Positions 4,967-19,761 of a stretch of DNA of 64,000 bases are shown here, piece after piece; within the stretch, counting starts at the first letter, position 1; each line of letters starts with the position of its first letter. The stretch is from Pedobacter psychrophilus (GTDB lineage: Bacteria; Bacteroidota; Bacteroidia; Sphingobacteriales; Sphingobacteriaceae). The notes beneath the pieces were generated by a model, which saw nothing but the letters and a program-made list of their open reading frames with translations, ran no database searches and was not told the origin of the DNA. Both the position numbers and the translations under genes were made by a program. The stretch covers positions 868,001-932,000 of the forward strand of contig NZ_LWHJ01000011.1 of NCBI RefSeq assembly GCF_001652725.1, read 5' to 3'.

Positions 4967-6916
4967 TTAGCTTTTAGATTCTAATTTCTTTTTAGCTGCT
5001 TTTTTAGCATCGCCTTCCATTTTATCTTTCAATTGAGATAAAACATCCAAATCACCTAAAGTAGATTTCTCAACAGAATCTTTCACTTTTTTAACAGAAG
5101 CGCTAGCTGCAGAAACTTCTTTCTTTTTGGTAGCTCTTTCTTCTTGCAAAGCTTCTGCTTTTTCTTCTTCCCATATACGGGCATGAGAAACTACAATACG
5201 CTTAGCATCTTTGTTAAATTCAATGATTTTAAAATCTGCAACTTCATCAACTTTTAAAGTAGATCCGTCTTGTTTAGCAGAGTGCTTAGATGGTACAAAA
5301 CCTTCAACTCCGTAAGGTAAAGCAATAATTGCTCCTTTATCAGTAACCTTAGTCACTGTTCCTTCATGGATAGAATCTACTGTGAAGATAGTTTCGAAAG
5401 TTTCCCATGGATTTTCTTCTAATTGTTTATGACCTAAGCTTAACTTACGGTTATCAACATCTAGTTCTAATACTACGGTATCTAATTCTTCACCAACTTT
5501 AGTAAACTCGTTAGGGTGATTTACCTTTTTAGACCAGGAAAGATCAGAAATATGGATTAAACCATCAATTCCTTCTTCAATCTCTACAAACACACCAAAG
5601 TTAGTCATGTTCTTAACTGTAGCTTTGTGCTTGCTTCCAATTGGATATCTTTCTGCTGCCTTTTCCCATGGATCTGGTGTTAATTGCTTAATACCTAAAG
5701 ACATTTTGCGTTCGTCTCTGTCTAAAGTTAAAACGATAGCTTCAACCTCGTCGCCAGTCTTCATAAACTCTTGTGGATTACGCAAGTTTTGAGACCAAGA
5801 CATTTCAGATACGTGGATTAATCCTTCTACTCCTGGAATAATTTCTAAGAAAGCTCCGTAATCTGCAACGGTTACAATCTTACCTTTAACCTTAGATCCG
5901 ATAGCTAAACCAGTATCTAGAGATTCCCAAGGATGTGCAGAAAGTTGTTTTAAACCTAAAGCAATACGTTTTTTCTCATCATCAAAGTCAAGAACAACAA
6001 CGTTAACTTTTTCATCTAAAGACAATACTTCTTTTGGATGCTCTATGCGGCCCCAAGAAATATCGGTAATGTGTAATAAACCGTCAACTCCACCTAAATC
6101 GATAAATACACCGAAATCAGTAATGTTTTTAACAGTTCCTTCTAATACTTGTCCTTTTTCTAATTTAGAAACGATTTCAACTTTTTGTGATTCTAAATCG
6201 TCCTCGATAAGAACTTTATGAGAAACTACAACGTTTTTAAATTCGTGGTTGATTTTTACAACCTTAAATTCCATTGTTTTACCAACGTAAACATCGTAAT
6301 CTCTAATAGGCTTAATGTCAATTTGCGATCCTGGTAAGAAAGCCTCAACGCCCATAATATCAACGATTAAACCACCTTTAGTTCTGCTTTTCACAAAACC
6401 GTTAATGATCGTATCATTTTCTAAGGCTTCATTGATCATCTCCCAAGAGCGTTGTGTTTTAGCTCTTTTACGAGATAACACCAACTGGCCATTTTCATCT
6501 TCTCTTTGCTCAACAAATACATCCACGGTATCGCCTTTCTTAAGGTCGGGCATATCACGGAATTCGTTAACTGCTACTAAACCATCAGATTTAAAACCGA
6601 TGTTTAATACCACGTCTTTGCTGTTAATGGTTACCACAACACCAGAGATAATTTCTCCTTTAGTTACAGAATTGAAAGTACCAGAGTACATTTCTTCCAT
6701 TTTTTCACGCTCGGCTTTGCTATAATTACCAAACATTTTTACATCTGCGTCCCAATCAAAATCGTTAGGGTCTGCAATTTTTGACGACGTCTTAATATCG
6801 TCAATAGATAATGAATCAGCTTCTGACTCATATACCTCTTTTACTTTTTTCTCAGTGTCTTGAAATTCGGCCTGTTTAGACTCTAATTCCTTCTCTGCTA
6901 CTTGTTTTTTTGCCAT
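4967..6916 (-). CDS. rpsA: 30S ribosomal protein S1
   Basis: A 649-residue protein with six consecutive S1 (OB-fold RNA-binding) domains. Approximate residues are 85-155, 168-238, 253-325, 340-412, 427-498 and 512-584. Domains 3-5 carry the canonical GVFI/GAFLEI...GLLH/GLIH(I/V)S(D/E) pattern. Domains 1, 2 and 6 are divergent, as in other bacterial S1 proteins. An acidic N-terminal extension (about 75 residues) and a Lys-rich tail flank the domains. S1 helps the 30S subunit bind and unfold mRNA, which matters in a phylum that rarely uses Shine-Dalgarno pairing. It appears monocistronic, with a -7 box upstream and its own terminator. Confidence 0.97.
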   Translation of the reverse strand: MAKKQVAEKELESKQAEFQDTEKKVKEVYESEADSLSIDDIKTSSKIADPNDFDWDADVKMFGNYSKAEREKMEEMYSGTFNSVTKGEIISGVVVTINSKDVVLNIGFKSDGLVAVNEFRDMPDLKKGDTVDVFVEQREDENGQLVLSRKRAKTQRSWEMINEALENDTIINGFVKSRTKGGLIVDIMGVEAFLPGSQIDIKPIRDYDVYVGKTMEFKVVKINHEFKNVVVSHKVLIEDDLESQKVEIVSKLEKGQVLEGTVKNITDFGVFIDLGGVDGLLHITDISWGRIEHPKEVLSLDEKVNVVVLDFDDEKKRIALGLKQLSAHPWESLDTGLAIGSKVKGKIVTVADYGAFLEIIPGVEGLIHVSEMSWSQNLRNPQEFMKTGDEVEAIVLTLDRDERKMSLGIKQLTPDPWEKAAERYPIGSKHKATVKNMTNFGVFVEIEEGIDGLIHISDLSWSKKVNHPNEFTKVGEELDTVVLELDVDNRKLSLGHKQLEENPWETFETIFTVDSIHEGTVTKVTDKGAIIALPYGVEGFVPSKHSAKQDGSTLKVDEVADFKIIEFNKDAKRIVVSHARIWEEEKAEALQEERATKKKEVSAASASVKKVKDSVEKSTLGDLDVLSQLKDKMEGDAKKAAKKKLESKS

Positions 6917-7193: not shown

Positions 7194-7296
7194 ATTTGGG
7201 CGTTTTCCGCCAGCTAACGGACGGATCGGGCTTTACACTGTATCTTTTTGTCCGCCAGCTGGCGGACAAAAAGGATGCCGTTTCAATCCCTAACGC
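7194..7296 (-). repeat. Dispersed structured element, copy A
   Basis: Read on the minus strand, this copy begins GCGTTAGGGATTGAAACGGC and ends AACGCCCAAAT, the same ends as copies at 12088 and 18107. The core is a perfect 30-bp palindrome at 7244-7273 (TCCGCCAGCT/AGCTGGCGGA inside T5/A5). A further TCCGCC...GGCGGA-type insertion makes this copy longer than the 81-bp copies. The outer GCGTT can pair with AACGC. No coding potential is seen. It is either a structured non-coding RNA or a small REP/MITE-like repeat. It forms part of a 663-bp gene-free gap (6917-7579). Confidence 0.75.
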
Positions 7297-7318
7297 AAAA
7301 GAAACCTATAAATCGGAT

Positions 7319-7475
7319 CTACCATAATGTCGTCCCTCCGTTGCTACCATAATGTCGTCCCGCTGTTGCTACCATAATATCGTCCCTCTGGGACTGAATT
7401 CAAATTTTATCAATTGAATCTACCATAATGTCGTCCCTCTATTGCTACCATAATGTCGTCCCGCTGGGACTGAAT
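7319..7475. repeat. Five-unit 25-bp repeat (CTACCATAATGTCGTCCC)
   Basis: Five copies of CTACCATAATGTCGTCCC start at 7319, 7344, 7369, 7420 and 7445. Adjacent copies are 25 bp apart. Copies 3 and 5 end in GGGACTGAAT, making a short GTCCC...GGGAC hairpin. Copies 1, 2 and 4 are cut before that point. Copies 3 and 4 are separated by about 20 bp of unrelated AT-rich sequence. There are no unique CRISPR-sized spacers. It looks like a degenerate intergenic repeat family. Confidence 0.8.
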
Positions 7476-7480
7476 CATAG

Positions 7481-7579
7481 AATCTGTGTAATCATTTTAA
7501 ACTGTGCAATCCCAAAGACAATCTGTGAAATCATTTTAATCTGTGTAATCAAGAAAACAATCTATGCAATCACGAAAAC
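7481..7579. repeat. 39-bp tandem repeat abutting the ndh stop codon
   Basis: Two full 39-bp units (7481-7519 and 7520-7558) and a 21-bp partial third unit (7559-7579) share the pattern AATCTGTGNAATCATTTTAA...TGTGNAATC. The last base touches the ndh stop codon at 7580-7582. On the minus strand the array is therefore the first part of the ndh 3' untranslated region. Confidence 0.8.
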
Positions 7580-8878
7580 TTATACCGGTTTAGCCTCTTC
7601 GGTCATTCTATCCCTATCAAATTTTCTGATAATTACCCTTGATCCTCTATCATAACTAAAATAATTTACTATCCAATTAATTAAGGTTACCGCTTTGTTT
7701 CTAAAACCTACCAAAAATAAAAGGTGGACAAACATCCACGTTAACCAAGCGAAGAAACCTTGGAACTTCCAAAAACTTAAATCTACTACGGCTTTATTTC
7801 TTCCAACCGTAGCCATAGAACCTTTATCATAATATTCAAAAGGATGTGGTTTCTCGTTGTTAATAATTCTTAATAAATTTTCCCCCAATTGTTTCCCTTG
7901 TTGAATCGCAGTTTGTGCAACTCCAGGATGTCCGTGTGGATAATCTTTTGTCTCCATATAAGCAATATCTCCTATGGCAAAAATATTCTCGTAACCTTCT
8001 ATTAAATTATAATTAGTGGTTTTTAACCTGCCTCCTCGCACAACTTCTGCTTTGTCTAAACCCGGAATCATAGCACCTTTAACTCCTGCGCTCCAGATTA
8101 CTCCTTTGGCATGTATAGTTTGTGTATCATTATAAGTTACCAAATGTCCATCATAATGGTTAACCCTAATGTTTTCCATTACGGTTACGCCCATATTCTC
8201 TAAAAATTCCTTTGCTTTTGCTGATGCTTCTTCTGAAAATGGTGATAATATCCGTTCACTACCTTCAATTAAATAAATATTCATTTTGTGAATATCTAAT
8301 TCAGGGTAATCGTAAATTAAAACGTGGGTTTTCAATTCTGCCAAAGCACCTGCAGTTTCTACACCGGTTGGTCCGCCGCCTACAATCACAAAATTCATTA
8401 AGGCTTGCTTCTTTTCAGGATCTTTTTCAATTAAGGCTTCCTCAAAATTTTGTAGAATTAAAGAACGTAAGTTTAATGCTTCCGGAACAGTTTTCATGGG
8501 CATAGAAAAATGCTCAATCTCATCCTGACCAAAAAAGTTAGTTTCAGAACCTGTGGCAATTACCAAATAATCATATTCGTATTCGCCAATATCAGTGATA
8601 ATTTTTTTGTTTTCAGCCTGAATTTCCTTAACATCTGCAACCCTAAAATTTAGGTTTTTTTGGGTTCTAAAAACTTTTCTCAAAGGAAAGGCAATGGAAT
8701 CTGGCTCTAAACCTCCAGTGGCAACTTGGTATAACAAAGGCTGAAAAGTGTGATAATTGTGCTTATCAACCATCAAAACATCTACTTCTTTATCTTTTAA
8801 ATTTTTACCTAATTGTATGCCACCAAAACCACCACCAATAATGATAACTTTAGGAAATTGCGTATGTTCTTTATTCAT
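7580..8878 (-). CDS. ndh: Type II NADH:quinone oxidoreductase (NDH-2)
   Basis: A 432-residue flavoprotein of the two-dinucleotide-binding-domain family. The FAD-binding GGGFGG lies at residues 15-20, the NAD-binding VIVGGGPTGVETAG at about 165-178, and the second FAD motif as IFAIGDIAY at about 300. The C-terminal region (about 375-415) is hydrophobic and amphipathic, as expected for the monotopic membrane anchor of NDH-2. It passes electrons from NADH to quinone without pumping protons. It lies downstream of a ferredoxin and ferredoxin reductase on the same strand, but a 235-bp repeat-filled gap separates it from them, so co-transcription is uncertain. Repeats begin directly after its stop. 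Confidence 0.92.
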   Translation of the reverse strand: MNKEHTQFPKVIIIGGGFGGIQLGKNLKDKEVDVLMVDKHNYHTFQPLLYQVATGGLEPDSIAFPLRKVFRTQKNLNFRVADVKEIQAENKKIITDIGEYEYDYLVIATGSETNFFGQDEIEHFSMPMKTVPEALNLRSLILQNFEEALIEKDPEKKQALMNFVIVGGGPTGVETAGALAELKTHVLIYDYPELDIHKMNIYLIEGSERILSPFSEEASAKAKEFLENMGVTVMENIRVNHYDGHLVTYNDTQTIHAKGVIWSAGVKGAMIPGLDKAEVVRGGRLKTTNYNLIEGYENIFAIGDIAYMETKDYPHGHPGVAQTAIQQGKQLGENLLRIINNEKPHPFEYYDKGSMATVGRNKAVVDLSFWKFQGFFAWLTWMFVHLLFLVGFRNKAVTLINWIVNYFSYDRGSRVIIRKFDRDRMTEEAKPV

Positions 8879-8985
8879 ATCTTTTTTTATAAAAGTAGTA
8901 GGTAATAAGTAGTAAGTTATAAGTAGAAAGTATCAAGTAAAAGCATCAACTTATAACCTTCATTCATCCAATTCTTCAATTACTC

Positions 8986-9105
8986 AAAATTTAATCATTC
9001 AACCTTCAATCATTCAACCTTCAATCATTCAAAATTCAATCATTCAAAATTCAATCATTCAAAATTCAATCATTCAAAATTCATTCAGTCAACCTTCAAT
9101 CATTC
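8986..9105. repeat. Eight-unit 15-bp tandem repeat
   Basis: Eight consecutive 15-bp units with consensus AAAATTCAATCATTC or AACCTTCAATCATTC run without gaps from 8986 to 9105. Unit 7 is divergent (9076-9090). The array fills most of the 235-bp gap between ndh and the ferredoxin gene and stops 8 bp before the ferredoxin stop codon. No hairpin is formed. Such arrays are prone to copy-number change. Confidence 0.88.
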
Positions 9106-9113
9106 AAAACTAA

Positions 9114-9434
9114 CTACAAAAGGTCTCCTCTAATCTTAATCTTAATTCCTTCTAATTGTTCGTTAACACGCAATTGACATGCCAGCCTGCTATCACTTCC
9201 AGCATCAGGTAAAGTGTCTAACATATCCAATTCTTGGTCTTGTGGTTCAGGTAAATTATCTAATCCCTCTAAAACCTGTACATGGCAGGTTGCACAAAGC
9301 GCCATGCCTCCACAAGTAGCCAGAATATTATAGTCGGAAGCTTTTAGCACCTCCATTAAATTTAGATTAATCCCTTCAGGAATTTCAATTTCTTGTTCGG
9401 TATCGTCTCTGTCTACTACTGTTAATTTGATCAT
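9114..9434 (-). CDS. 2Fe-2S ferredoxin (adrenodoxin type)
   Basis: A 106-residue ferredoxin. The four cluster ligands are C41, C47, C50 and C86 (CGGMALCATC and LACQL), spaced as in vertebrate/ISC-type adrenodoxins rather than plant-type ferredoxins. The DQELDMLD segment between them is typical of the same branch. It is an electron carrier in the cytoplasm. Its start lies 8 bp downstream of the stop of a ferredoxin-NADP reductase gene, which itself overlaps a MarR regulator gene. The three genes therefore very likely form one operon, and the reductase is the probable electron donor (inference). Confidence 0.92.
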   Translation of the reverse strand: MIKLTVVDRDDTEQEIEIPEGINLNLMEVLKASDYNILATCGGMALCATCHVQVLEGLDNLPEPQDQELDMLDTLPDAGSDSRLACQLRVNEQLEGIKIKIRGDLL

Positions 9435-9442
9435 GATTTTGA

Positions 9443-10462
9443 TTAAAAACTATTTACGCCGTAAACAGTGGTATATTTAAATGATAATTTTTGATCTGGA
9501 TAAACAAATTTGAAAGCACTTTGTGCCATTAAAGCTCCTTCATGGAAACCACTTAAAATCAATTTCAGTTTTCCGGGATAAGTGTTGATATCGCCTATAG
9601 CAAAAATACCTTCTACATTTGTAGAATAATCTTCCGTATTTACCATAATTTGAGATTTTTCAATGTTTAATCCCCAATCTGCAATTGGGCCTAATTTTGG
9701 ACTTAACCCAAATAGAGGAATTAGATAATCTGCTTCCAAATTACTTTCTACTTTGTTTTTATCTAACAATGTAATTTCAGTTAAATGTCCATTTCCATTG
9801 ATTTTAGTTAAATGAGAAGATAAAATCAGATTAACTTTACCCATTTCTGCTAATTTGAAAACCTTTTCAGCAGAATCTGGCGCACCTCTAAAAGTATCGC
9901 CTCGGTGTACCAAAGTAATTTCTTTTGCGATGTTAGCTAAAAAAATAGTCCAGTCTAATGCAGAATCCCCGCCACCAGCCAAAACAATTTTTTTATCACG
10001 ATAAACTTCCGGGTCTTTCACCATATAGTTTACGCCTTTTCCTTCAAATAAACTCAAGTTTTCAATATCCGGTTTTCGAGGCTCAAAACAACCTAATCCG
10101 CCAGCAATTACAACTGCTTTACAATGAATCTCAGAATGATCACTTGTGGTTACTTTGAAAGTTCCATTTTCATCTTTATCTAATTTTTCCACTCTCTCGC
10201 CCAAAGTAAAACCAGGTTCGAAAGGTTTTATTTGAGCCATTAAATTCTCTACTAACTCTTGCGCTTTAATCTCTGGAAAACCAGGAATATCATAAATTGG
10301 CTTATGCGGATAAATTTCTGAAAGCTGTCCGCCAACTTGTGGTAAAACATCTATTAAATGGCAACGCATTTTTAGTAAGCCAGCCTCAAAAACGGCAAAT
10401 AAGCCAACCGGACCAGCTCCAATAATGCATAAGTCTGTATGTATAATAGTTTGATTGTTCAT
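9443..10462 (-). CDS. Ferredoxin-NADP reductase, thioredoxin-reductase-like type
   Basis: A 339-residue FAD/NAD(P) oxidoreductase. The FAD motif CIIGAGPVGLFAVFEAG lies at about 12-28, the NADPH motif VLAGGGDSALDW at about 160-172, and the FAD-ribityl motif FAIGDINTYPGKLKLILSGF at about 288-307. It lacks the CxxC active site of true thioredoxin reductase, as expected for the YumC-type ferredoxin-NADP reductases of Firmicutes and Bacteroidota. Its ATG overlaps the stop of the MarR gene by 4 bp, and a ferredoxin gene follows after 8 bp. This points to a regulated NADPH-ferredoxin electron supply module. Confidence 0.9.
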   Translation of the reverse strand: MNNQTIIHTDLCIIGAGPVGLFAVFEAGLLKMRCHLIDVLPQVGGQLSEIYPHKPIYDIPGFPEIKAQELVENLMAQIKPFEPGFTLGERVEKLDKDENGTFKVTTSDHSEIHCKAVVIAGGLGCFEPRKPDIENLSLFEGKGVNYMVKDPEVYRDKKIVLAGGGDSALDWTIFLANIAKEITLVHRGDTFRGAPDSAEKVFKLAEMGKVNLILSSHLTKINGNGHLTEITLLDKNKVESNLEADYLIPLFGLSPKLGPIADWGLNIEKSQIMVNTEDYSTNVEGIFAIGDINTYPGKLKLILSGFHEGALMAQSAFKFVYPDQKLSFKYTTVYGVNSF

Positions 10463-10893
10463 GATAATGTTTGATATATGTTATTCAAAATTCTTTTTAA
10501 ATCGTTATAATCTTTTTCGCTGAGATTTTCCCAGGCTTTAGTTCTAATCTCAGAAACAATTGGACTCCATTCCTCAAATTTCTGAATGCCGTGAGTTGTT
10601 AAATGAATGATAAAACTTCTACGATCGTTTGCCGAAGCTCTTCTTTCTACTAAATCTTTTTTAACCAATAAATCTAAAATCCGGGTTAATGTAGGATGGT
10701 CTTTTCCAGTCAATTCTGCCAGCTGACTTTGGTTTTGATCATTGTTTTGACTCAAAGTTTTTATGATAAGCCATTGATCTACGGTTATATCAAAATTTGC
10801 TGCTTTAAAACGATTTTGGGCATATTGCTTAATCTTTCTATTGGTACGATCTAAGAGAAAAGAATAAGCACTAAATTTTTCCGTTGTTTCCAT
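10459..10893 (-). CDS. MarR family transcriptional regulator
   Basis: The 144-residue start at the ATG at 10893 is preferred. The frame extends 15 codons further upstream, but that stretch overlaps the promoter and encodes an unlikely hydrophobic tail. Residues about 30-115 contain the winged helix (DQWLIIKTLSQN, SQLAELTGKDHPTLTRILDLLVKKDLVERRAS, the wing DRRSFIIHLT). MarR proteins are dimeric repressors that bind palindromes and respond to phenolics, oxidants or antibiotics. The stop overlaps the next gene by 4 bp. A 33-bp perfect palindrome overlaps the -33 box of its own promoter, which suggests autoregulation of the regulator-reductase-ferredoxin operon. Confidence 0.92.
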   Translation of the reverse strand: METTEKFSAYSFLLDRTNRKIKQYAQNRFKAANFDITVDQWLIIKTLSQNNDQNQSQLAELTGKDHPTLTRILDLLVKKDLVERRASANDRRSFIIHLTTHGIQKFEEWSPIVSEIRTKAWENLSEKDYNDLKRILNNIYQTLS

Positions 10894-10907
10894 AATAATT
10901 AGTGCAA

Positions 10908-10939
10908 CAAATATATGTATAAAAATTAATCCTATCAAA
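10908..10939 (-). promoter_or_regulatory. Bacteroidota-type promoter of the marR-FNR-ferredoxin operon
   Basis: On the minus strand TTTG (10936-10939) is followed by a 20-bp spacer and then TATATTTG (10908-10915). This fits the TTTG-N19-21-TAnnTTTG consensus of Bacteroidota sigma-ABfr promoters. The ATG at 10893 follows 14 nt later, implying a very short leader. Confidence 0.8.
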
Positions 10940-10955
10940 TTGATAGGATTAATTT
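10923..10955. promoter_or_regulatory. 33-bp perfect palindrome: MarR operator and/or rlmF terminator
   Basis: Arms 10923-10938 and 10940-10955 pair perfectly around one central base (half-site TTGATAGGATTAATTT). It covers the -33 box of the marR promoter, the position expected for an autorepressor operator. It also starts 4 bp after the rlmF stop and is followed on the minus strand by T5, so it may double as the rlmF terminator. Confidence 0.7.
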
Positions 10956-10959
10956 AAAA

Positions 10960-11967
10960 CTAAATTTCTTCTTTAATAATCTCTGGTTTTTCTTGCTGTG
11001 GTAAAGTACTCATCCAGGCTTCTTGCTTTTCTTTGTTTTGGAAAGTCCAGGCCAAAATTCTGCTTACTTTATTGCCTTGGCCCATTGGTAAAATTTTAAT
11101 ATCAAAAGCTTCTGCATAATCTAATTGTTTGTATGCGGCATCTAAATGAGCAACATTAGAGATTAAAGTAGTAAACCATAAACAACAATTTGCGTAAGTT
11201 TTACTTTGCTCTATCATGGTATTTACAAATTTACCTTCACCACCATAGCAGTAAACTTCTTTACTTTGGCCACCAAAATTTGCAGTTACTTCCTCTACTT
11301 TTTCTTTACCTAAATTACTCACCTTTTTAATGGCTTTGGCTTGTGCCTCATGCATAGAAGAGTAAAAAGGCGGATTACAGATGGTAACATGAAAACGTTC
11401 TGTCAATTCCATCACTCCATTGAAAATATTTTTGTTGTTTATTTGATGTCTGAATTTAATTTTTCCATCTAATTGTGGGTTGGCAGCCACTATTTTATTG
11501 GCTGAATCAATTGCTGTTTGATCAATATCAACACCAACAAAATTCCATCCATATTCGCTATTTCCTATTAAAGGATAAACGCAATTTGCGCCTACGCCCA
11601 CATCAAAACATTTAATCTGTTTCCCTTTTGGGATGATGCCTTTATTACTGGTAGCTAATAAATCTGATATATTATGGATATAATCTGCTCTCCCTGGTAT
11701 TGGCGGAACAAGATAACCTTGTGGAATCCCCCAATTTTTAACATTATAAAAATGCAACAATAGTGCTTTGTTTAATGCTTTTACTGCTTCAGGATCTGCA
11801 AAATCTAATGTTTCAATTTCATATTCATTAATAAAAATAAAAGGTTTTAAATCTGGATTGGAGATAGCTAATTCTTGTAGGTTATATCTTCCCTGATGTT
11901 TATTTCGAGGATGTAGTTTTGCCTTTATCTTTTGCTTTACGTTTCTCTTCTTATTTTTTATTGGCAT
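10960..11967 (-). CDS. rlmF: 23S rRNA (adenine-1618-N6)-methyltransferase
   Basis: A 335-residue SAM-dependent methyltransferase. The N-terminus is highly basic (KNKKRNVKQKIKAKLHPRNKHQG), fitting RNA binding. The SAM site is at CFDVGVGANCVYPLIG (about 120-135). The catalytic NPPF of N6-adenine methylases is in VTICNPPFYSS at about 198. The order and length fit RlmF (YbiN), which methylates A1618 in 23S rRNA. It lies alone between the marR palindrome and a 278-bp gap containing dispersed-element copy B. Confidence 0.93.
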   Translation of the reverse strand: MPIKNKKRNVKQKIKAKLHPRNKHQGRYNLQELAISNPDLKPFIFINEYEIETLDFADPEAVKALNKALLLHFYNVKNWGIPQGYLVPPIPGRADYIHNISDLLATSNKGIIPKGKQIKCFDVGVGANCVYPLIGNSEYGWNFVGVDIDQTAIDSANKIVAANPQLDGKIKFRHQINNKNIFNGVMELTERFHVTICNPPFYSSMHEAQAKAIKKVSNLGKEKVEEVTANFGGQSKEVYCYGGEGKFVNTMIEQSKTYANCCLWFTTLISNVAHLDAAYKQLDYAEAFDIKILPMGQGNKVSRILAWTFQNKEKQEAWMSTLPQQEKPEIIKEEI

Positions 11968-12087
11968 GAAATGAATATTTTAAAAGTCGCAATTTATGGA
12001 TTTTAAAAGTATTTTGGATTATTTAATAATATTGCAACAGATCTTTATCTGATACAATGGCACTAAATGTAAGAGATATTATGAGTT

Positions 12088-12168
12088 GCGTTAACGATTG
12101 AAACGGCATCCTTTTTTTCCTTTTCAGGAAAAAAGATATAGTGGAAAGCGTGTATAAACGCCCAAATA
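12088..12168 (+). repeat. Dispersed structured element, copy B
   Basis: An 81-bp copy starting GCGTTAACGATTGAAACGGC and ending AAACGCCCAAAT. The central hairpin is ATC-C-T7CC / GGA6-GAT with a bulged C. The outer GCGTT can pair with the 3' AACGC. It aligns without gaps to copy C at 18107 and over its ends to copy A at 7194. It lies between the rlmF start and the mlaD terminator, on the strand opposite both genes. Confidence 0.75.
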
Positions 12169-12195
12169 TTTAATTTAAGTCAATTAATTTTAAAT

Positions 12196-12230
12196 AAAAA
12201 AGCTTGTCCATTTCAATGAACAAGCTTTAA
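12196..12230 (-). terminator. Rho-independent terminator of the amidase-mlaD unit
   Basis: A stem with AAAGCTTGT (12199-12207) pairing with ACAAGCTTT (12220-12228) is followed on the minus strand by seven T residues. It lies 16 bp past the stop of the MCE-family gene. Confidence 0.9.
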
Positions 12231-12245
12231 ATATTAAAATTTATA

Positions 12246-13190
12246 TTAATCTTTTCTTCCGCCGAAAACCGAGAAGCTTACGTAGCGTTTTGGGTTTGCT
12301 TTAACATCTAGCATTAACTCATCTAAATCTTTGGCAGACTTATTTAAGTTATTATATAATTTATCATCGTTTAATAATAAAGCTATAGAACCAGTTCCTT
12401 GATTAACTTTATTAACAGCAGCTTGTAATTCTGTTACAGCTTTGTTTGCATTATCAATAGTTGCTTTAATATTTGTGGATGCCATTTGGCTAGAAAACGA
12501 GTTAAAATTGCCCACCATCTCGTTAATTTTTTGATTATTATTTTTCAAATTATTAGAGATGGATTCAGCGTTTGCTAATATCACATCAATTCTTTTTGCT
12601 TGAATTCCTACTGCACCATCAACAGTTTTAGATGTTGATTCTAAAGTTTGCAAAGTGTTGGCTATGCTAGCAAAACTCTTGTTGATGTTTCTTTGAAAAT
12701 CAGGATTCAAAATCATATTTACTGAAGAAAGTACAGAATCCATTTTAGAAACTATTTGTTGAGCTTTCTTCTGAACTGGCTCAACTTGTTCCATTAAATT
12801 AGCTTGTACATTGGCATTTAATGTGTCGCCATCAATAGCATATTGTAAGCTATTTCCTAAATCAAATACTACAGCTTTACTACCTAACAAATCTGTACTT
12901 TCTAATCTGGCAATTGTGTTTTTTGGAACTTCGTACTGAGGTTTTATTTTAAATTGAGCTAAAATTTGTCCATTTTCTAAAAGGGTAAGAGCAGAAACTC
13001 TTCCTATTTGATAACCGTTTACCAATACTGGTTTAGAGACAGCCAAACCATCTACTTTATCATATTTAGCGTAAAACTCGTTTTCGCTTACAAAAATATC
13101 ATTGCCCTTTAAAAAATTGTAGCCAATAATTAAAATGGCAATCGTAATTGCGGCTAGAATGCCGACTTTGGTTTCGTTAGAAATTTTCAA
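12246..13190 (-). CDS. MlaD/MCE family lipid-transport protein
   Basis: A 314-residue protein with one N-terminal membrane anchor (about 8-26, GILAAITIAILIIGYNFL), then a single MCE beta-barrel domain (about 38-115; DGLAVSKPVLVNGYQIGRV, LGSKAVVFDLG). A long helical tail follows with many Asn and Gln residues (about 140-300). MlaD forms a periplasmic hexamer that carries phospholipids between the membranes with the MlaFE ABC transporter. No mlaE or mlaF gene is adjacent here. The gene follows the amidase by 29 bp on the same strand and faces lptD, so three envelope functions are clustered. Confidence 0.9.
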   Translation of the reverse strand: MKISNETKVGILAAITIAILIIGYNFLKGNDIFVSENEFYAKYDKVDGLAVSKPVLVNGYQIGRVSALTLLENGQILAQFKIKPQYEVPKNTIARLESTDLLGSKAVVFDLGNSLQYAIDGDTLNANVQANLMEQVEPVQKKAQQIVSKMDSVLSSVNMILNPDFQRNINKSFASIANTLQTLESTSKTVDGAVGIQAKRIDVILANAESISNNLKNNNQKINEMVGNFNSFSSQMASTNIKATIDNANKAVTELQAAVNKVNQGTGSIALLLNDDKLYNNLNKSAKDLDELMLDVKANPKRYVSFSVFGGRKD

Positions 13191-13219
13191 AATATTTCAC
13201 TTAAGTTATACAAGCTTGA

Positions 13220-14080
13220 TTAAGATTCTACCTGTTTTTTATAATTAATTATAGCGGTGACGATGTTAGTTACGATTTCCTCTTGTCCAGCATCAGAATT
13301 CATAAAAACTTCTTCAGTTGGATTGCTTATGAAACCAATCTCTGTTAAAATAGCGGGCATTCCAGCTCTAGCCAATACGGCTAAACTTTTTTCTTGAACA
13401 CCTCTATTAACCCTACCGCTTTTAACGTATTCATCTTGCATTAATGATGCCAATTTTATGCTCTGATCCCTGAAGGCATTTTTCATTAAAGAAAAGATTA
13501 TATAGCTCTCAGGATCATTAGGATCAAATCCTTGATAATTATCTTTATAATCTTTTTCTAGTAATACAGAGGCGTTTTCACGTACTGCCGCATCTTGCTC
13601 ATCAAGTCTACCAAATCCTGATACAAAACTTTCGGTACCTTTTGGTCTTGGGTCAGGAATGCTCTTATAATATGCTTTTCCTTTAACAACGTAACGCTGT
13701 CTTATATTTGGCATTGAATTACAATGAATAGAAATAAAAAGGTCTGCTTTCTCTTTGTTAGCGATGTTTATACGTTCATATAATTTTACAAATACATCAG
13801 TTTTACGAGTATAAACCACCCTTACGCCAGGTATTCTGTTTTCTATCGCACTTCCTAATTTAAGTGCAACAGCTAAGGCTACATCTTTTTCTTTTGAAAT
13901 TGAGCCACGGGTTGCACCATCTTCCCCTCCATGGCCAGCATCAATCACAATAACTTTTATTTTATTAATTGTGGATAAATTTTTATTTCCATCTGCTATT
14001 TTTAAAGAACTAAAAATAACGAAACTAAAAATTGTTAATATTAAACAGCTAATAAACCTTTTTGATGTTGTAATTTTCAT
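13220..14080 (-). CDS. N-acetylmuramoyl-L-alanine amidase (Amidase_3)
   Basis: A 286-residue secreted zinc amidase. A signal or anchor segment covers residues 10-27. The catalytic domain begins at about 42: IDAGHGGEDGA supplies the first zinc His, SIHCNSMP the second, and the catalytic Glu lies in ILTEIGFISNP near the C-terminus. A long insert between (about 125-195, containing YKSIPDPRPKGTESFVSGFG) is typical of the Bacteroidota branch and may gate the active site. It cleaves the bond between muramic acid and the stem peptide in peptidoglycan. It is probably co-transcribed with the mlaD-like gene and divergent from lptD. Confidence 0.92.
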   Translation of the reverse strand: MKITTSKRFISCLILTIFSFVIFSSLKIADGNKNLSTINKIKVIVIDAGHGGEDGATRGSISKEKDVALAVALKLGSAIENRIPGVRVVYTRKTDVFVKLYERINIANKEKADLFISIHCNSMPNIRQRYVVKGKAYYKSIPDPRPKGTESFVSGFGRLDEQDAAVRENASVLLEKDYKDNYQGFDPNDPESYIIFSLMKNAFRDQSIKLASLMQDEYVKSGRVNRGVQEKSLAVLARAGMPAILTEIGFISNPTEEVFMNSDAGQEEIVTNIVTAIINYKKQVES

Positions 14081-14112
14081 TAATTTTGGACGTTTTTGGA
14101 TAACCTTGCTTA

Positions 14113-14120
14113 CAAAAATA
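14113..14120 (-). promoter_or_regulatory. Candidate -7 box of the amidase-mlaD promoter (TATTTTTG)
   Basis: TATTTTTG on the minus strand matches TAnnTTTG and ends 32 nt before the amidase ATG. No clear -33 box is present. It lies in the 50-bp divergent region shared with lptD. Confidence 0.45.
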
Positions 14121-14130
14121 TTATTCTTTA

Positions 14131-16788
14131 TTGATTTTGAAATTTACCTATATATTTTTTACTTGTATCTTATTATTTCTAAACATTAGTGTTAAAGCTA
14201 ATGGTTTTTATCAAGTAGATACTTTAAAAAGTAAATCTAGGTTAACTGCCATTACGCCTCTCAAAACCGATACCCTGAAAACGGATACTTTAAAGAAAAA
14301 TTCTAACAAAGGCGAAATTACTGATATAATTAAAGCTGTAGCATCTGATTCTTCATTTTATGATGCGAAGAATAATGTAATGTATCTTTATGGAAATGCC
14401 AGGATTACTTATGGAGAAAAACAGGTTGATGCAGGATATATTAAAGTTGATTATAAAACCAACACCATTTTTGCAAGAGGGAAAACGGATTCTTTAGGGA
14501 GATTTTCTGGTCTGCCAATTTTTAAAGATCCGCAACAAGGCGCTTTAACTGCCGATTCTGTTTATTATAACTTTAAAACTTCTAAAGGTAGAATCTATCA
14601 AGTTTATTCTGAACAAGATGGAGGCTACATTACTGGTGGAAAAATTAAAAAACAAGCAAATGAGGAAGTCCATCTAAAAAATGTAATTTATTCTACCTGC
14701 GATTTACCTTCGCCACACCAGCATTTTGGTATTGTAATTACAAAAGGAATTGCTACTAAAAACCAAATTGTAACTGGACCAGCTTACATGGTAATTGAGG
14801 ATGTTCCTTTACCGTTTGTAATCCCTTTTGGGTTTTTTCCGAAGCCAAATAAAAGAGCATCAGGAATTATTTTGCCGCAAATTGGCGAGGATCAAACGTT
14901 AGGTTTTTTTCTTCGTGATTTTGGTTATTACATTGGTTTAAACGATTACTGGGATATGACTTTAAAAGGTGGGATTTATTCTAAAGGTTCTTATGAAACT
15001 AATGTAGCCAGTAGATATACCAAGCGTTATAAATATAGTGGTAATATATTTCTATCATATTCCTCCCGTAAATTTGGTGTAGAAGGAACTCCAGAATATG
15101 AAAATCCGACAAAAGATTTTAGGATACAATGGTCTCATTCTCAAAATGCGAGTGCGCACCCGGGCTCAAACTTTAGTGCATCTGTAAATGCAAGTACAAG
15201 CGGTGCTTTTAGAAATGTTCCCGGAAGCAGTTATCAGCAAATAGTTCAGAACCAAATTGGATCAAGTATTTCTTACAGTAAAACTTTTGCTAATACGCCT
15301 TTTAGCTTAAGTACAGCCTTAAATCACAGTCAAGATTTAACCTCTGGAAGGGTAAATTTAGGTTTACCAGCTTTAAACTTTAGTATGACAACTTTAAATC
15401 CTTTTGATAGTAAGGATAGGATTGGAGAACAAAAATGGTATCAAAGAATAGCAGTTGGTTACGGTTTACAGGCCAATAATCAGATAAATACAATAGATAC
15501 TTTATTATTTAAGAAAGAAACTTTAAGGCAAATACAATCAGGTATTCAACATAACATTCCAATTTCATTATCATCACAAGTATTAAAATATTTTCAATTT
15601 AGCCAAAGTTTAAACTATAATGAAAGATGGTATTTTCAAACCATCAGGAAAAATTATATTGCTAGGCCCACGCCCACAGGTACCAGAGATTCATTGGCAA
15701 TTGATACCATCTCAGGCTTTAGAAGAGCAGGTGATTATAATATAAGCGGAGGATTATCTACCAAGGTTTATGGGATTGTAAAATTTAAAAAAGGAAAAAT
15801 AACCGCCATAAGACATGTGTTAACACCCAACGTTGGTTTTTCCTACCGTCCAGATTTTGGAGAACCGAGCTATGGATATTTTGATAGTGTTCAGATTGAT
15901 CAAACCGGAAGGCGACAAGCTTATTCTGTTTTTGAGCAAGGTTTATACGGAGGACCTGGTAATGGAAAAAGTGCTGCTATTACATTTGGGGTAGATAATA
16001 ATATAGAATTAAAAGTAAAATCTAGTAAAGACACGACCAATAATGGGATTAAGAAAATCCCAATTTTACAAGGTTTATCTCTAAACGGATCTTATAATTT
16101 TGTTGCCGATAGTTTAAAGCTTTCTCAATTGAGCTTTAGTGGAAGAACTTTTTTTACAGAAAAATTAGGGGTTAGTTTTTCTGGAAATCTAGATCCTTAT
16201 CAAACCTTAAGGCAAAATATAAATGGACAGGAATCTGTAAGGACAATAGATAGATACCGTTGGTTGGATGGTAAATTCCCCAGGTTAACCAATTTTAATT
16301 TTTCTTTTGATTATAGCCTAAATTCTAGTACGCTGGGCAAAAATAATAAAACAAATAATCCACCAAACCCAAATAGTGATTTATTTAATAGAGTAAATGC
16401 CCAACAAGCAGAGCAATTGCAGCAAATCAGTAGAAATTCTAACGCTTTTGTAGATTTTAATGTGCCTTGGAATTTAAGTTTCTATTATAATTTTAACTAC
16501 TCTAATAATGGGCTAAATACGGCTTTGGTACAAACATTAAATGCCAATGGCGATTTTAATCTGACGCCAAAATGGAAAGTACAATTTAATACGGGTTACG
16601 ATTTTGCAGCAAAGGCAGTCAGCTTAACTTCATTTTCTATTTACAGGGATTTACATTGTTGGGATATGTCAATCAGGTGGATTCCTTTTGGACCTTACCA
16701 AAGTTACAGTGTAGATTTAAGGGTAAAAGCTTCCATATTACAAGATTTAAAATTGAGTAAAAGGAGAGAATATTACAATCAGTTTTAA
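14131..16788 (+). CDS. LPS-assembly protein LptD-like outer membrane protein
   Basis: An 885-residue protein starting at a TTG. A signal peptide covers about 1-24. Residues about 60-230 form the OstA/LptA-like beta-jellyroll (NNVMYLYGNARITYGEKQVDAG, TADSVYYNFKTSKGRIYQ). The rest is a beta-barrel with many alternating aromatic strands and the LptD-like FVIPFGFFPKPNKRASGIILP near 235-255. LptD inserts lipopolysaccharide into the outer membrane. The length of about 880-920 residues is normal for Bacteroidota. No LptE gene is visible. It is divergent from the amidase and 2 bp upstream of cinA on the same strand. Confidence 0.85.
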   Translation: MILKFTYIFFTCILLFLNISVKANGFYQVDTLKSKSRLTAITPLKTDTLKTDTLKKNSNKGEITDIIKAVASDSSFYDAKNNVMYLYGNARITYGEKQVDAGYIKVDYKTNTIFARGKTDSLGRFSGLPIFKDPQQGALTADSVYYNFKTSKGRIYQVYSEQDGGYITGGKIKKQANEEVHLKNVIYSTCDLPSPHQHFGIVITKGIATKNQIVTGPAYMVIEDVPLPFVIPFGFFPKPNKRASGIILPQIGEDQTLGFFLRDFGYYIGLNDYWDMTLKGGIYSKGSYETNVASRYTKRYKYSGNIFLSYSSRKFGVEGTPEYENPTKDFRIQWSHSQNASAHPGSNFSASVNASTSGAFRNVPGSSYQQIVQNQIGSSISYSKTFANTPFSLSTALNHSQDLTSGRVNLGLPALNFSMTTLNPFDSKDRIGEQKWYQRIAVGYGLQANNQINTIDTLLFKKETLRQIQSGIQHNIPISLSSQVLKYFQFSQSLNYNERWYFQTIRKNYIARPTPTGTRDSLAIDTISGFRRAGDYNISGGLSTKVYGIVKFKKGKITAIRHVLTPNVGFSYRPDFGEPSYGYFDSVQIDQTGRRQAYSVFEQGLYGGPGNGKSAAITFGVDNNIELKVKSSKDTTNNGIKKIPILQGLSLNGSYNFVADSLKLSQLSFSGRTFFTEKLGVSFSGNLDPYQTLRQNINGQESVRTIDRYRWLDGKFPRLTNFNFSFDYSLNSSTLGKNNKTNNPPNPNSDLFNRVNAQQAEQLQQISRNSNAFVDFNVPWNLSFYYNFNYSNNGLNTALVQTLNANGDFNLTPKWKVQFNTGYDFAAKAVSLTSFSIYRDLHCWDMSIRWIPFGPYQSYSVDLRVKASILQDLKLSKRREYYNQF

Positions 16789-16790
16789 TT

Positions 16791-18041
16791 ATGCAAGCAG
16801 AGATTATTACCATTGGTGATGAAATATTAATTGGCCAAATAGTGGACAGCAATTCGGCTTGGATGGCAACTGAATTGAATAAGATTGGCATCAACGTAAA
16901 ACAAATTACCTCTGTTTCTGATAATGAAAACCATATTCTAGAAGCTTTTAAGGAAGCAGAAAGTAGAGCTGATATCATTTTGATTACAGGTGGCTTAGGT
17001 CCGACAAAAGATGATATTACCAAAAAAACAATGGCTAAATATTTTGGCTCTAAAGAAATGGTAATTGATGAGCCAACTTTAGAAGTTGTAAAGAAGATTT
17101 TTGCCAAGTACAAAGCTCCATTACTTGATGTAAATATTGACCAAGCCAGAGTACCAGATAATTGTGAGGTTTTATTGAATGAGCAAGGAACAGCACCTTG
17201 TATGTTGTTTAGAAAGGGAGCTAAAATTTTTATTTCTATGCCCGGTGTGCCTTATGAAATGATGAATTTGATGAGCACTAAAGTAATTCCTTTGATAAAG
17301 AAGGAATATGAACTACCTGCTATTTATCATCAAACCATATTAACTGCTGGTGTTGGAGAATCTTTTTTAGCCGAAGAGATTAAAGATATTGAGGAAGCGT
17401 TACCACCATATATTAAATTGGCTTATTTACCGAAATTAGGTTCAGTAAGGTTGAGGTTAAGTAGCACAAGCCATGCGGATGAAAATATTAAAAAAGAAAT
17501 AAATGGTTTCATAAATCAGATTATAGATAAGATTCCAAAATATTGGGTTGCTAAAGAGGATATACCGATTGAAAAAGTAATCCTAAATTTAATGATGGAA
17601 AACAACCTCACACTTTCTGTTGCTGAAAGTTGTACAGGCGGTTCAATTTCTCAAGCTATTACCCAACATGCTGGCTGCTCAGCTGTATTTGCTGGTGGAG
17701 GAATTGTGTATTCTTACGAGTTAAAAACCAAATTATTGGGGGTGAATCCTAAAACTTTAGCAGATTTTGGTGCGGTAAGTGAAGAAACGATTAAAGAAAT
17801 GGTAAAAGGAGCGTTAAATAATTTTAGTACCGATTATGCCATTGCAGTAAGTGGGATTGCTGGCCCAGATGGAGGAACTGAAGATAAACCCGTTGGTACA
17901 GTTTGGATTGCGGTAGCAAACAAAGATAAAACAGTGACTAAGAAATTCAGTTTTGGTAATAAAAGAACTCAAAATATTGAAAGATCTGTAATGGCAGCTT
18001 TTAATTTATTGTTTAGACTTTTGAAGGAGAATGTCGTTTAG
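16791..18041 (+). CDS. cinA: CinA family nicotinamide-nucleotide amidohydrolase
   Basis: A 416-residue two-domain protein. Residues 1-170 are the molybdopterin-binding-like (COG1058) domain (IITIGDEILIGQIVDSNSAW, LITGGLGPTKDDIT). Residues about 255-416 are the CinA_C/PncC domain, with AESCTGGSISQAIT and the signature GIAGPDGGTEDKPVGTVWIA. PncC hydrolyses nicotinamide mononucleotide to nicotinate mononucleotide in NAD recycling, and the N-terminal domain in some relatives acts on ADP-ribose. It starts 2 bp after the lptD stop, so both genes are likely on one transcript. Dispersed-element copy C lies 66 bp after its stop. Confidence 0.93.
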   Translation: MQAEIITIGDEILIGQIVDSNSAWMATELNKIGINVKQITSVSDNENHILEAFKEAESRADIILITGGLGPTKDDITKKTMAKYFGSKEMVIDEPTLEVVKKIFAKYKAPLLDVNIDQARVPDNCEVLLNEQGTAPCMLFRKGAKIFISMPGVPYEMMNLMSTKVIPLIKKEYELPAIYHQTILTAGVGESFLAEEIKDIEEALPPYIKLAYLPKLGSVRLRLSSTSHADENIKKEINGFINQIIDKIPKYWVAKEDIPIEKVILNLMMENNLTLSVAESCTGGSISQAITQHAGCSAVFAGGGIVYSYELKTKLLGVNPKTLADFGAVSEETIKEMVKGALNNFSTDYAIAVSGIAGPDGGTEDKPVGTVWIAVANKDKTVTKKFSFGNKRTQNIERSVMAAFNLLFRLLKENVV

Positions 18042-18106
18042 GTTTTTAGGTTTAAACTAAATTAATTCTGAGAAAAAACGTTACTGGATCACTAAATTGA
18101 TAGTAA

Positions 18107-18187
18107 GCGTTAACGATAGGAGCGATATCCTTTTTTTCTTTTTCTGAAAAAAAGATTTAGTGGATAGCGTGTTAAAACGCCCAAATT
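18107..18187 (+). repeat. Dispersed structured element, copy C
   Basis: An 81-bp copy beginning GCGTTAACGATAGGAGCGAT and ending AAAACGCCCAAAT, aligning gap-free with copy B. The central T-rich/A-rich hairpin and the terminal GCGTT/AACGC pairing are retained. It lies 66 bp past the cinA stop, in the cinA direction, within the 331-bp gap before the E2 gene. The remaining gap sequence is AT-rich and holds a possible -7 box for E2. Confidence 0.75.
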
Positions 18188-18372: not shown

Positions 18373-19761
18373 ATGGCTCAGTACGAACTATTATTACCAA
18401 AAATGGGAGAGAGTGTTGCAGAAGCAACGGTTATTAGGTGGGAGAAAAATCCTGGAGATAATATTGCCATTGATGATACGATTTTAGAAATAGCGACGGA
18501 TAAAGTGGATTCTGAAGTTCCATCGCCTGTTTCTGGGAAAATGGTTAAGCATCTTTTTAATGAAAATGATGTTGCCCAAGTTGGTGATGTGATTGCAATT
18601 ATAGAAATTGAAAGTGATACAGCAGTTGCGGAAGAAGTTAAAGACGCCGAACTGGAAAGTCTAGAAAAAGCCACAGAAATTCCTTTTGTACCAGAAGAAA
18701 AAGAAGAAACAATAGAAGATAAAGTTGAGGAGGTGAAAACTGAAGAAACTGATGAAGTTAAACAACCAAATAATTTTAGCTCTTCAGATCGTTTTTATTC
18801 GCCTTTAGTTAAAAGTATAGCTCAAGAAGAAGGAATTAGCGTCGAGCAATTGGATAATATTAAAGGTTCTGGAAGTGAAGGAAGAGTTACTAAGGATGAT
18901 TTGCTAGATTTTATCAGTTCTAAAAACAATAATAACTCACAAACTAAAGATCAAATAAACACTACTAGTTCTCAAGAACCTGTCGAATCTAAAAAACAAG
19001 AAACTCCAGCTACTGAACCTGCAAAAGTAGTGCAGCCAGTTGCCAAAAGCGGAGGAGACGAAATAATTGAGATGGATAGAATGCGTAAACTGATTGCTGA
19101 TCATATGGTAAGCAGTAAGCAAACTTCGCCACATGTTACTTCATTTATAGAAGTTGATGTGACCAATATGGTGAATTGGAGGAATAAAGTGAAAACAAGT
19201 TTTGAGAAAAGAGAAGGAGAAAAAATAACATTTACCCCAATTTTTGTAGAAGCTGTTGCTAAAGCGCTAAAGGATTTGCCAATGGTAAATGTTTCTGTAA
19301 AGGGAAGTCAGATTATTAAGAAAAAAGATATCAATATTGGTATGGCTACGGCTTTACCAAGTGGTAATTTAATTGTACCGGTTATAAAAAATGCTGATCA
19401 GTTAAACCTAGTTGGCTTAACAAAATCTGTAAACGATTTGGCTAGAAGATCAAGAGCAAATAAATTATTACCCGATGAAGTACAAGGTGGTACTTTCACA
19501 GTAACTAACCTTGGTACTTTTGATAATACAATGGGAACACCAATTATTAACCAACCCCAAGTTGCCATTTTAGCAGTTGGTGCTATTAAAAAGAAACCTG
19601 CTGTTTTAGAAACTGAATATGGCGATGTGATTGCTATTAGACATTTAATGTACCTTTCTATGAGCTATGATCACCGAGTTGTAGATGGTTCTTTAGGCGG
19701 AATGTTCATTAAAAAAGTTGCTGATAATTTAGAGCAATGGGATGTAAATAGAGAGATTTGA
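18373..19761 (+). CDS. 2-oxoacid dehydrogenase E2 (dihydrolipoyl acyltransferase)
   Basis: A 462-residue protein with the full E2 layout. The lipoyl domain is at 1-78, with the modified lysine in EIATDKVDSEV. An acidic linker follows, then the peripheral subunit-binding domain at about 142-182 (SPLVKSIAQEEGISVEQLDN, GRVTKDDLLDFI), a second linker, and the catalytic domain at about 230-462 ending with the active-site SYDHRVVDG. The E2 core moves acyl groups from lipoyl-lysine to CoA. Which complex it serves (pyruvate or branched-chain) cannot be told from the sequence alone, and no E1 or E3 gene is adjacent. It is convergent with the alpha-2-macroglobulin gene. Confidence 0.93.
   Translation: MAQYELLLPKMGESVAEATVIRWEKNPGDNIAIDDTILEIATDKVDSEVPSPVSGKMVKHLFNENDVAQVGDVIAIIEIESDTAVAEEVKDAELESLEKATEIPFVPEEKEETIEDKVEEVKTEETDEVKQPNNFSSSDRFYSPLVKSIAQEEGISVEQLDNIKGSGSEGRVTKDDLLDFISSKNNNNSQTKDQINTTSSQEPVESKKQETPATEPAKVVQPVAKSGGDEIIEMDRMRKLIADHMVSSKQTSPHVTSFIEVDVTNMVNWRNKVKTSFEKREGEKITFTPIFVEAVAKALKDLPMVNVSVKGSQIIKKKDINIGMATALPSGNLIVPVIKNADQLNLVGLTKSVNDLARRSRANKLLPDEVQGGTFTVTNLGTFDNTMGTPIINQPQVAILAVGAIKKKPAVLETEYGDVIAIRHLMYLSMSYDHRVVDGSLGGMFIKKVADNLEQWDVNREI

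What the first reader, a model, noticed from the sequence alone, without database searches (positions are those of the whole stretch)
7194..18187. Three-copy dispersed structured element with conserved ends and a conserved hairpin
Copies lie at 7194-7296 (minus), 12088-12168 (plus) and 18107-18187 (plus). All share GCGTTA..GAT.G.A.CG..ATCC at one end and A(G)ATNYAGTG.A.AGC...AACGCCCAAAT at the other. Copies B and C are both 81 bp and align without gaps. The outer GCGTT can pair with AACGC. The middle hairpin is kept while its sequence changes: T7CC/GGA6 in B, and a 30-bp perfect palindrome with GTCCGCC/GGCGGAC in A. Flanking single-stranded parts are better conserved than the stem. That pattern fits a structured RNA or a REP/MITE-type repeat. 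I know no named family for it.
Basis: partly seen in the sequence, partly recalled or inferred. Interest (0 to 1): 0.7.

Follow-up and report, generated by a model that had tools for sequence, protein, structure and literature searches.

The report
Dispersed Flavo-1 hairpin elements
The three repeats belong to Flavo-1, a family of folded elements listed in 2010 and still without a known function; this bacterium carries over a hundred scattered copies, and comparison with relatives suggests that their fold is preserved where each copy sits.

Summary
The genome has 119 matches, 99 over the score; congeners have 1 to over 80.

New here: in 97 of 113 extracted copies, 1131 of 1164 checked pairs are Watson-Crick, with strong covariation; G·T pairs outnumber A·C 22 to 4, so one strand is the folded one. 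Internal loops keep G-N-A on both sides. Most copies are intergenic, in either orientation, with no target-site duplication. They are not tied to Y1 (RAYT/IS200) transposases: three genomes with copies have no Y1 hit. At sites shared with two relatives, orientation is mostly the same, and stems change on both sides together (22 compensated double changes; 3.6 expected if the sides changed independently), while tips turn over.

Best reading: a REP-like dispersed hairpin of a known family, whose single-strand fold is kept in place, probably as a protein-docking structure. Spread mechanism and partner are unknown; gene conversion between copies is not excluded.

The parts
7194..7296 (-). Copy A of Flavo-1 (103 bases, GGG/CCC type, with a second hairpin in the linker)
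   Evidence: Rfam RF01705 58.6 bits at 7220-7301; sequence; same fold shape by DNA folding
7205..7226 (-). Linker of copy A with the second small hairpin (three-way junction)
   Evidence: parse; DNA fold
12088..12167 (+). Copy B of Flavo-1 (80 bases, ACG/CGT type, TATA linker)
   Evidence: Rfam RF01705 56.5 bits at 12080-12159; sequence
18107..18186 (+). Copy C of Flavo-1 (80 bases, ACG/CGT type, TTAA linker)
   Evidence: Rfam RF01705 50.6 bits at 18098-18178; sequence; a copy in the same spacer in relative G012

Best explanation
Each copy is a member of Rfam Flavo-1, about 80-105 bases whose + strand folds into one long hairpin: outer 5-bp stem, 3-bp stem, two 3x3 internal loops (the lower one G-N-A facing G-N-A) with a 2-bp stem between them, a bulged C under a T-run/A-run stem, and a fast-changing tip; some copies carry a second small hairpin, making a three-way junction. 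Shown: over 100 mostly intergenic sites in either orientation, no target-site duplication, strong differences in copy number between congeners, covariation, one folded strand, and compensated stem changes at sites shared with relatives. Inferred: the element spreads rarely, as DNA, by machinery not identified; a landed copy is then kept because its folded + strand is a docking structure for a protein, in transcripts or in transient single-stranded DNA, in the manner of REP elements. The partner and the effect on neighbouring genes are unknown.
For: Rfam match of all 3 copies; 119 matches in the genome. Pairs in 97 of 113 copies: 1131 WC, 22 G·T, 4 A·C, 7 other of 1164, against 924/76/58/105 after shuffling. 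Loop G..A kept in 93 and 92 of 97. Shared sites: 25 of 31 pairs same orientation; 22 WC-to-WC double changes against 3.6 expected from independent change; core identity 0.854 against 0.789 for mismatched pairs, reached by 0 of 5000 permutations. Six loop G/A positions agree in 19-22 of 22 shared pairs, four free loop positions in 8-13 of 22. No orientation preference relative to genes.
Against: Single-sequence folding supports the consensus only in part: mean pair probability 0.49 as RNA and 0.39 as DNA on the + strand, above 0.5 in 40 and 23 of 97 copies; RNA z-scores of B and C are weak (-1.3, -1.5) and the RNA minimum-energy fold of A is not the consensus. Copies are related, so shuffles overstate significance. 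Gene conversion between copies would also give paired changes. Many congeners do without most copies. The transcripts, the partner and the way of spreading were not observed. Shared sites were taken mostly from relative loci chosen for carrying a copy.
Confidence: 0.5

Rival explanations
1. Neutral repeats kept alike by gene conversion between copies, or by template switching inside the hairpin, without a function in place.
For: More than 100 similar copies in one genome; tips and linkers are swapped between types, some carrying other palindromes. Paired changes follow automatically if one copy overwrites another.
Against: Shared-site copies are more alike than mismatched ones. Template switching would remove the conserved loop mismatches, which are kept. 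Double changes per pair are not obviously bimodal.
Confidence: 0.2
2. Each copy is a transcribed small RNA or a cis-regulatory RNA, as the Rfam type 'Gene; sRNA' suggests.
For: Rfam type; + strand fold with G·T tolerance; several F. psychrophilum 5' transcribed regions coincide with hits (PMC9723704, passages).
Against: Sense 33 / antisense 31 / divergent 24 / convergent 15; no promoter motif enriched upstream in 105 copies; in F. psychrophilum hits lie indistinctly sense or antisense of transcribed regions and many outside them (PMC9723704, passages).
Confidence: 0.17
3. A REP-type element moved as single-stranded DNA by a Y1 (RAYT or IS200-like) transposase.
For: Hairpin, intergenic, no target-site duplication, T before the 5' end in 92% of 95 copies; subclass 2.6 RAYTs of Bacteroidetes are said to have atypical flanking structures with copies elsewhere (PMC6006769, passages).
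Against: The six RAYT-like genes of this genome are flanked by other palindromes, seen by eye. Flavo-1 within 1.5 kb of 4 of 48 Y1 loci scanned, about 4.6 expected at own-genome density; most of those genomes have fewer copies, so a mild excess is not excluded. G033 (27 copies), G039 (9) and G123 (at least 22) have no Y1_Tnp hit; G002 has 3 Y1 hits and 1 copy.
Confidence: 0.1
4. A DDE-type MITE.
For: Inverted ends GCGTTA / TAACGC.
Against: No target-site duplication of 2-10 bases at the offsets tested in 95 of 113 copies; the inner loops and stems are constrained too, not only the ends.
Confidence: 0.03

Closest known systems
Flavo-1 RNA, Rfam RF01705 (Weinberg et al. 2010, PMC2864571)
   Same: Sequence and structure model, above gathering score in all three copies and 99 genome copies; found in Bacteroidota.
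   Different: Most copies here have an outer GCGTT/AACGC stem and a CCCAAAT tail outside the 76-position model, often a variable linker hairpin; the Rfam record is typed as an sRNA gene, for which I found no support in gene context.
REP elements with RAYT (TnpA-REP) transposases
   Same: Many short intergenic hairpins, one functional strand, no target-site duplication.
   Different: No GTAG-type foot, imperfect stem with conserved mismatches, no linkage to Y1 genes, present in genomes without Y1 hits.
MITEs
   Same: Small, dispersed, inverted ends.
   Different: No target-site duplication; constrained inside as well as at the ends.

Membership tests
Flavo-1 (RF01705) | Covariance-model score at or above the gathering score of 42 bits | tested here: met
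   58.6, 56.5, 50.6 bits; 99 of 119 genome matches
Flavo-1 (RF01705) | Expressed as an RNA (Rfam type sRNA gene) | not testable with these tools
   No RNA-seq; no promoter signature upstream
REP / RAYT system | Copies flank a RAYT gene | tested here: not met
   Own RAYT-like genes have other palindromes; 4 of 48 Y1 loci have Flavo-1 within 1.5 kb
REP / RAYT system | A Y1 transposase in genomes with copies | tested here: not met
   G033, G039, G123 have copies and no Y1_Tnp hit
REP / RAYT system | GTAG/GTGG-type tetranucleotide at the foot of the hairpin | tested here: not met
   Foot is T-GCGTTA..TAACGC-CCAAAT; the defining foot is from PMC6006769 passages
MITE | Target-site duplication | tested here: not met
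   No signal, 95 of 113 copies, 2-10 bases
MITE | Autonomous transposon with the same ends | not tested
   No search made for other transposase families

The most novel reading that the evidence does not exclude
Flavo-1 is a genome-wide set of docking hairpins for one conserved partner that binds a folded single strand: orientation-indifferent, held by selection at many loci in Bacteroidota, with stems rewritten by compensated changes while the G-N-A loops stay fixed, and so neither a decaying repeat nor a collection of separate sRNA genes.
Probability: 0.3. Interest if true: 0.7.

Novelty: new member of a known kind. Interest (0 to 1): 0.45.

Why it matters
Flavo-1 was listed in 2010 as a probable RNA, and the searches made here (PubMed Central library only) showed no functional study. 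The results turn it into testable statements: which strand folds, which letters matter (G and A of the loops, stems), which do not (tip, linker), that Y1 transposases are not required, and that shared copies change in a compensated way. If selection in place is right, a large share of Bacteroidota spacers carry an unrecognised binding site.

Tried and rejected
RAYT/IS200 linkage was the main lead, from PMC6006769 passages; it failed on the RAYTs' own palindromes, on linkage counts, and on genomes with copies but no Y1 hit.

Replication-strand polarity: local 3-kb GC skew is positive in element orientation (64 of 105; 68 of 113), but with each copy's own locus left out regional skew gives 48 against 61, and orientations in single-contig genome G209 are mixed. 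A weak positive residue in the flanks stays unexplained.

Upstream promoter motif: nothing enriched. Plasmids: no match for copy B at E <= 1e-3. Viral contigs: 9 stretches hold a 20-base pattern, not followed up. RNA against DNA folding does not tell the two forms apart. The first regex parser failed (15 of 113) and was replaced. A literature search for dispersed intergenic repeats in Flavobacterium returned nothing.

Full report
OBSERVATION. Neighbours by Pfam: A lies between a protein with six S1 stretches (4967-6916) and an NDH2-like oxidoreductase (7580-8878); B between a PF05971 RNA methyltransferase (10960-11967) and a MlaD-domain protein (12246-13190); C between CinA (16791-18041) and a 2-oxoacid dehydrogenase acyltransferase (18373-19761).

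IDENTITY. Scanning the window against Rfam 15 gives exactly three matches above gathering scores: RF01705 Flavo-1, once per copy (alignments). The genome (4.0 Mb, 33 contigs) has 119 matches at E <= 1e-3, 99 above the gathering score (recount). Of 41 genomes (own included) 29 have a match; in the 17 congeners counts run from 1 (G002, one contig) to 84 (G008), under stricter filters that gave 87 for the own genome. A 29-base pattern of the GCGTTA type occurs in at least 110 stretches of named genomes (the scan stopped at its limit); the 80 listed bear names of Bacteroidota, among them Polaribacter, Lacinutrix, Algibacter, Tamlana, Flavobacterium and the MAG Pseudopedobacter sp. LF-bin-200. Contig lengths 5184, 9030 and 5051 of that MAG equal contigs of G010, so G010 is probably it (inference).

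ANATOMY. I extracted 113 of 119 copies and parsed them by their conserved halves. In element orientation: outer stem GCGTT/AACGC; A; stem ACG/CGT, GGG/CCC or AGG/CCT; AT; a T-A or A-T pair; loop G-N-A facing G-N-A; a 2-bp stem (AC/GT, GC/GC, GT/AC and others); a second 3x3 loop; ATC(C)/GAT or AG(C)/CT with one C bulged; a T-run against an A-run; a tip (23-51 bases with its base); then a linker (TTAA in 48, CCCG in 13 of 109 parsed; in others a small hairpin) before AACGC and the tail CCAAAT. DNA folding of copy A gives this overall shape, three-way junction included. In genome G209 copies of another type (outer TAGCC.., stems CCG/CGG or CTG/CAG) stand beside a few of the GCGTTA type (by eye).

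COVARIATION. In 97 of 113 copies and 12 pairs: 1131 WC, 22 G·T, 4 A·C, 7 other of 1164 cells; with partners shuffled 924, 76, 58 and 105. Mutual information at outer pairs 2 and 4, stem pairs 1 and 2, and pairs x, y1, y2 exceeds all of 2000 shuffles; outer pairs 3 and 5 only equal the highest shuffle, and three pairs hardly vary. Copies are related, so these are not probabilities. G·T is tolerated and A·C hardly (22 against 4), pointing to the + strand as a single strand, RNA or DNA; 13 of the 22 sit at one pair, so they are not independent. Both sides of the lower loop keep G..A (93 and 92 of 97) around a free base. The third position of the upper loop is C·A in 82, T·T in 9, A·G in 4, T·A in 1 and A·A in 1 of 97; the four A·G copies have an extra A-T pair and a full G-N-A/G-N-A loop. 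A Watson-Crick pair there is rare in this genome, but 3 of 22 relative copies have T·A, so it is not strictly avoided.

FOLDING. Single-sequence folding gives partial support. The + strand reaches the consensus better than its complement with RNA (mean pair probability 0.49 against 0.30) and with DNA parameters (0.39 against 0.27), yet exceeds 0.5 in only 40 and 23 of 97 copies. RNA z-scores are -4.2 (A, but with its two palindromes pairing with each other), -1.3 (B) and -1.5 (C); DNA z-scores are -4.8, -2.8 and -2.6. This does not decide between RNA and DNA.

PLACEMENT. By simple ORF calling 105 of 113 copies lie outside open frames of 70 codons or more; of the other 8, seven overlap frames of 73-108 codons and one a 514-codon frame that runs off its stretch or overlaps it. 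Neighbour classes: sense 33, antisense 31, divergent 24, convergent 15, two at contig ends. Gaps of 60 bases or more in the same stretches: 116 co-directional, 38 divergent, 25 convergent. In G209, 24 of 30 copies usable: sense 9, antisense 7, divergent 3, convergent 5. So there is no preference. No target-site duplication was seen (95 of 113 copies); T precedes GCG in 92%, and G is almost absent for about 8 bases after the tail.

GAIN, LOSS AND FATE. At site C, G012 has a copy in the same spacer (277 bases), while in 11 other congeners the spacer is 43-51 bases (nine), 145 or 177, without a copy that I could see, against 331 here. The difference exceeds the element, so this is not one clean insertion. 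Site B is empty in G012 (195 against 278 bases); site A is occupied there by another type. Matching 800-base flanks of own copies to loci of relatives gave 43 pairs. Without 12 repeat comparisons of site C, 31 pairs (30 own copies) remain: 25 same orientation, 4 labelled opposite (one of them holds both orientations), 2 none; 25 against 4 has a two-sided binomial p of 1e-4. Most relative loci were fetched because they carry a copy, so absences are undercounted. In 22 well-parsed pairs, 226 of 264 base pairs are unchanged, 22 changed on both sides from WC to WC, 5 went from G·T to WC, 9 between WC and a mispair by one change, 2 by two; 3.6 double changes are expected if the sides change independently. 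Three of the nine mispairs come from a slipped parse of one pair, L217 (printed). Shared-site copies are more alike than mismatched ones (0.854 against 0.789; 0 of 5000 permutations), so at least many descend from one insertion, though for 17 of 22 some other relative copy is closer still. Six loop G/A positions agree in 19-22 of 22, four free loop positions in 8-13 of 22, no tip is identical. Flanks of 40 bases align only slightly better than mismatched ones (8.6 against 6.0 and 9.1 against 6.9). In this genome the 106 copies parsed are all distinct; the closest pair differs by 2 edits, the median nearest distance is 10: no fresh burst.

Y1 TRANSPOSASES. The genome has 8 Y1_Tnp genes. The six RAYT-like ones are flanked by palindromes of their own, seen by eye. 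Of 48 Y1 loci scanned (8 own, 30 of 30, 10 of 29) 4 have Flavo-1 within 1.5 kb (L037, L268, L238, L265); at own-genome density 4.6 would be expected, and since most of those genomes have fewer copies a mild excess is not excluded. G033 (27 copies), G039 (9) and G123 (at least 22) have no Y1 hit; G002 has 3 and one copy.

LITERATURE (PubMed Central library only). PMC2864571: table row seen, Flavo-1 probable RNA, probably not cis-regulatory. PMC9723704: passages seen; in F. psychrophilum several structured 5' regions coincide with hits, but hits seemed indistinctly sense or antisense and many were outside transcribed regions, giving no real clue to function. PMC6006769: passages seen, subclass 2.6 RAYTs. 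Four papers name RF01705 and two name Flavo-1 with 'RNA motif'; the others were seen as listings only.

MECHANISM. Shown: dispersal, family, fold, strand, compensated change at shared sites, loop conservation. Inferred: selection in place on a single-stranded fold, most likely as a docking structure for a protein, and rare spread as DNA by unknown means. Template switching in the hairpin would keep stems paired but should erase the conserved mismatches. Gene conversion between copies is the strongest remaining alternative.

VERDICT. Real; a known family with a large set of new copies. The family's function stays open and is now easier to test.

Noticed in passing
window 7310-7480 (beside copy A); L032 1230-1390: Tandem GGGACGACATTATGGTAG-type repeats beside copy A; the same repeat type lies beside a lone Y1_Tnp gene (L032) whose YIINQEKHH motif resembles subclass 1.2 of PMC6006769.
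   Followed up: partly
window about 7480-7600: Imperfect repeats of GATTACACAGATT type upstream of copy A.
   Followed up: no
L034 about 1374-1387: A fragment like the Flavo-1 5' end (GCGTTAGGGATTGA) directly beside a RAYT unit, as if the RAYT unit had landed in a copy.
   Followed up: no
L036 and L038: RAYT-like genes with duplicated neighbours: the 3' end of an aldehyde dehydrogenase-like gene on both sides (L036), and a truncated plus a full tandem RAYT copy (L038).
   Followed up: no
tips and linkers of own copies, e.g. C27:129967, C29:230225, C11:398464: The palindrome GTCCGCCAGCTGGCGGAC sits in tips and in linkers of several copies, as if palindromes were exchanged at these two places.
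   Followed up: partly
flanks of own copies, +-1.5 kb: Weak positive GC skew in element orientation that regional skew does not explain.
   Followed up: partly
viral-contig loci L347-L355: Nine viral contigs hold a Flavo-1-like 20-mer; phage carriage and host contamination were not separated.
   Followed up: no
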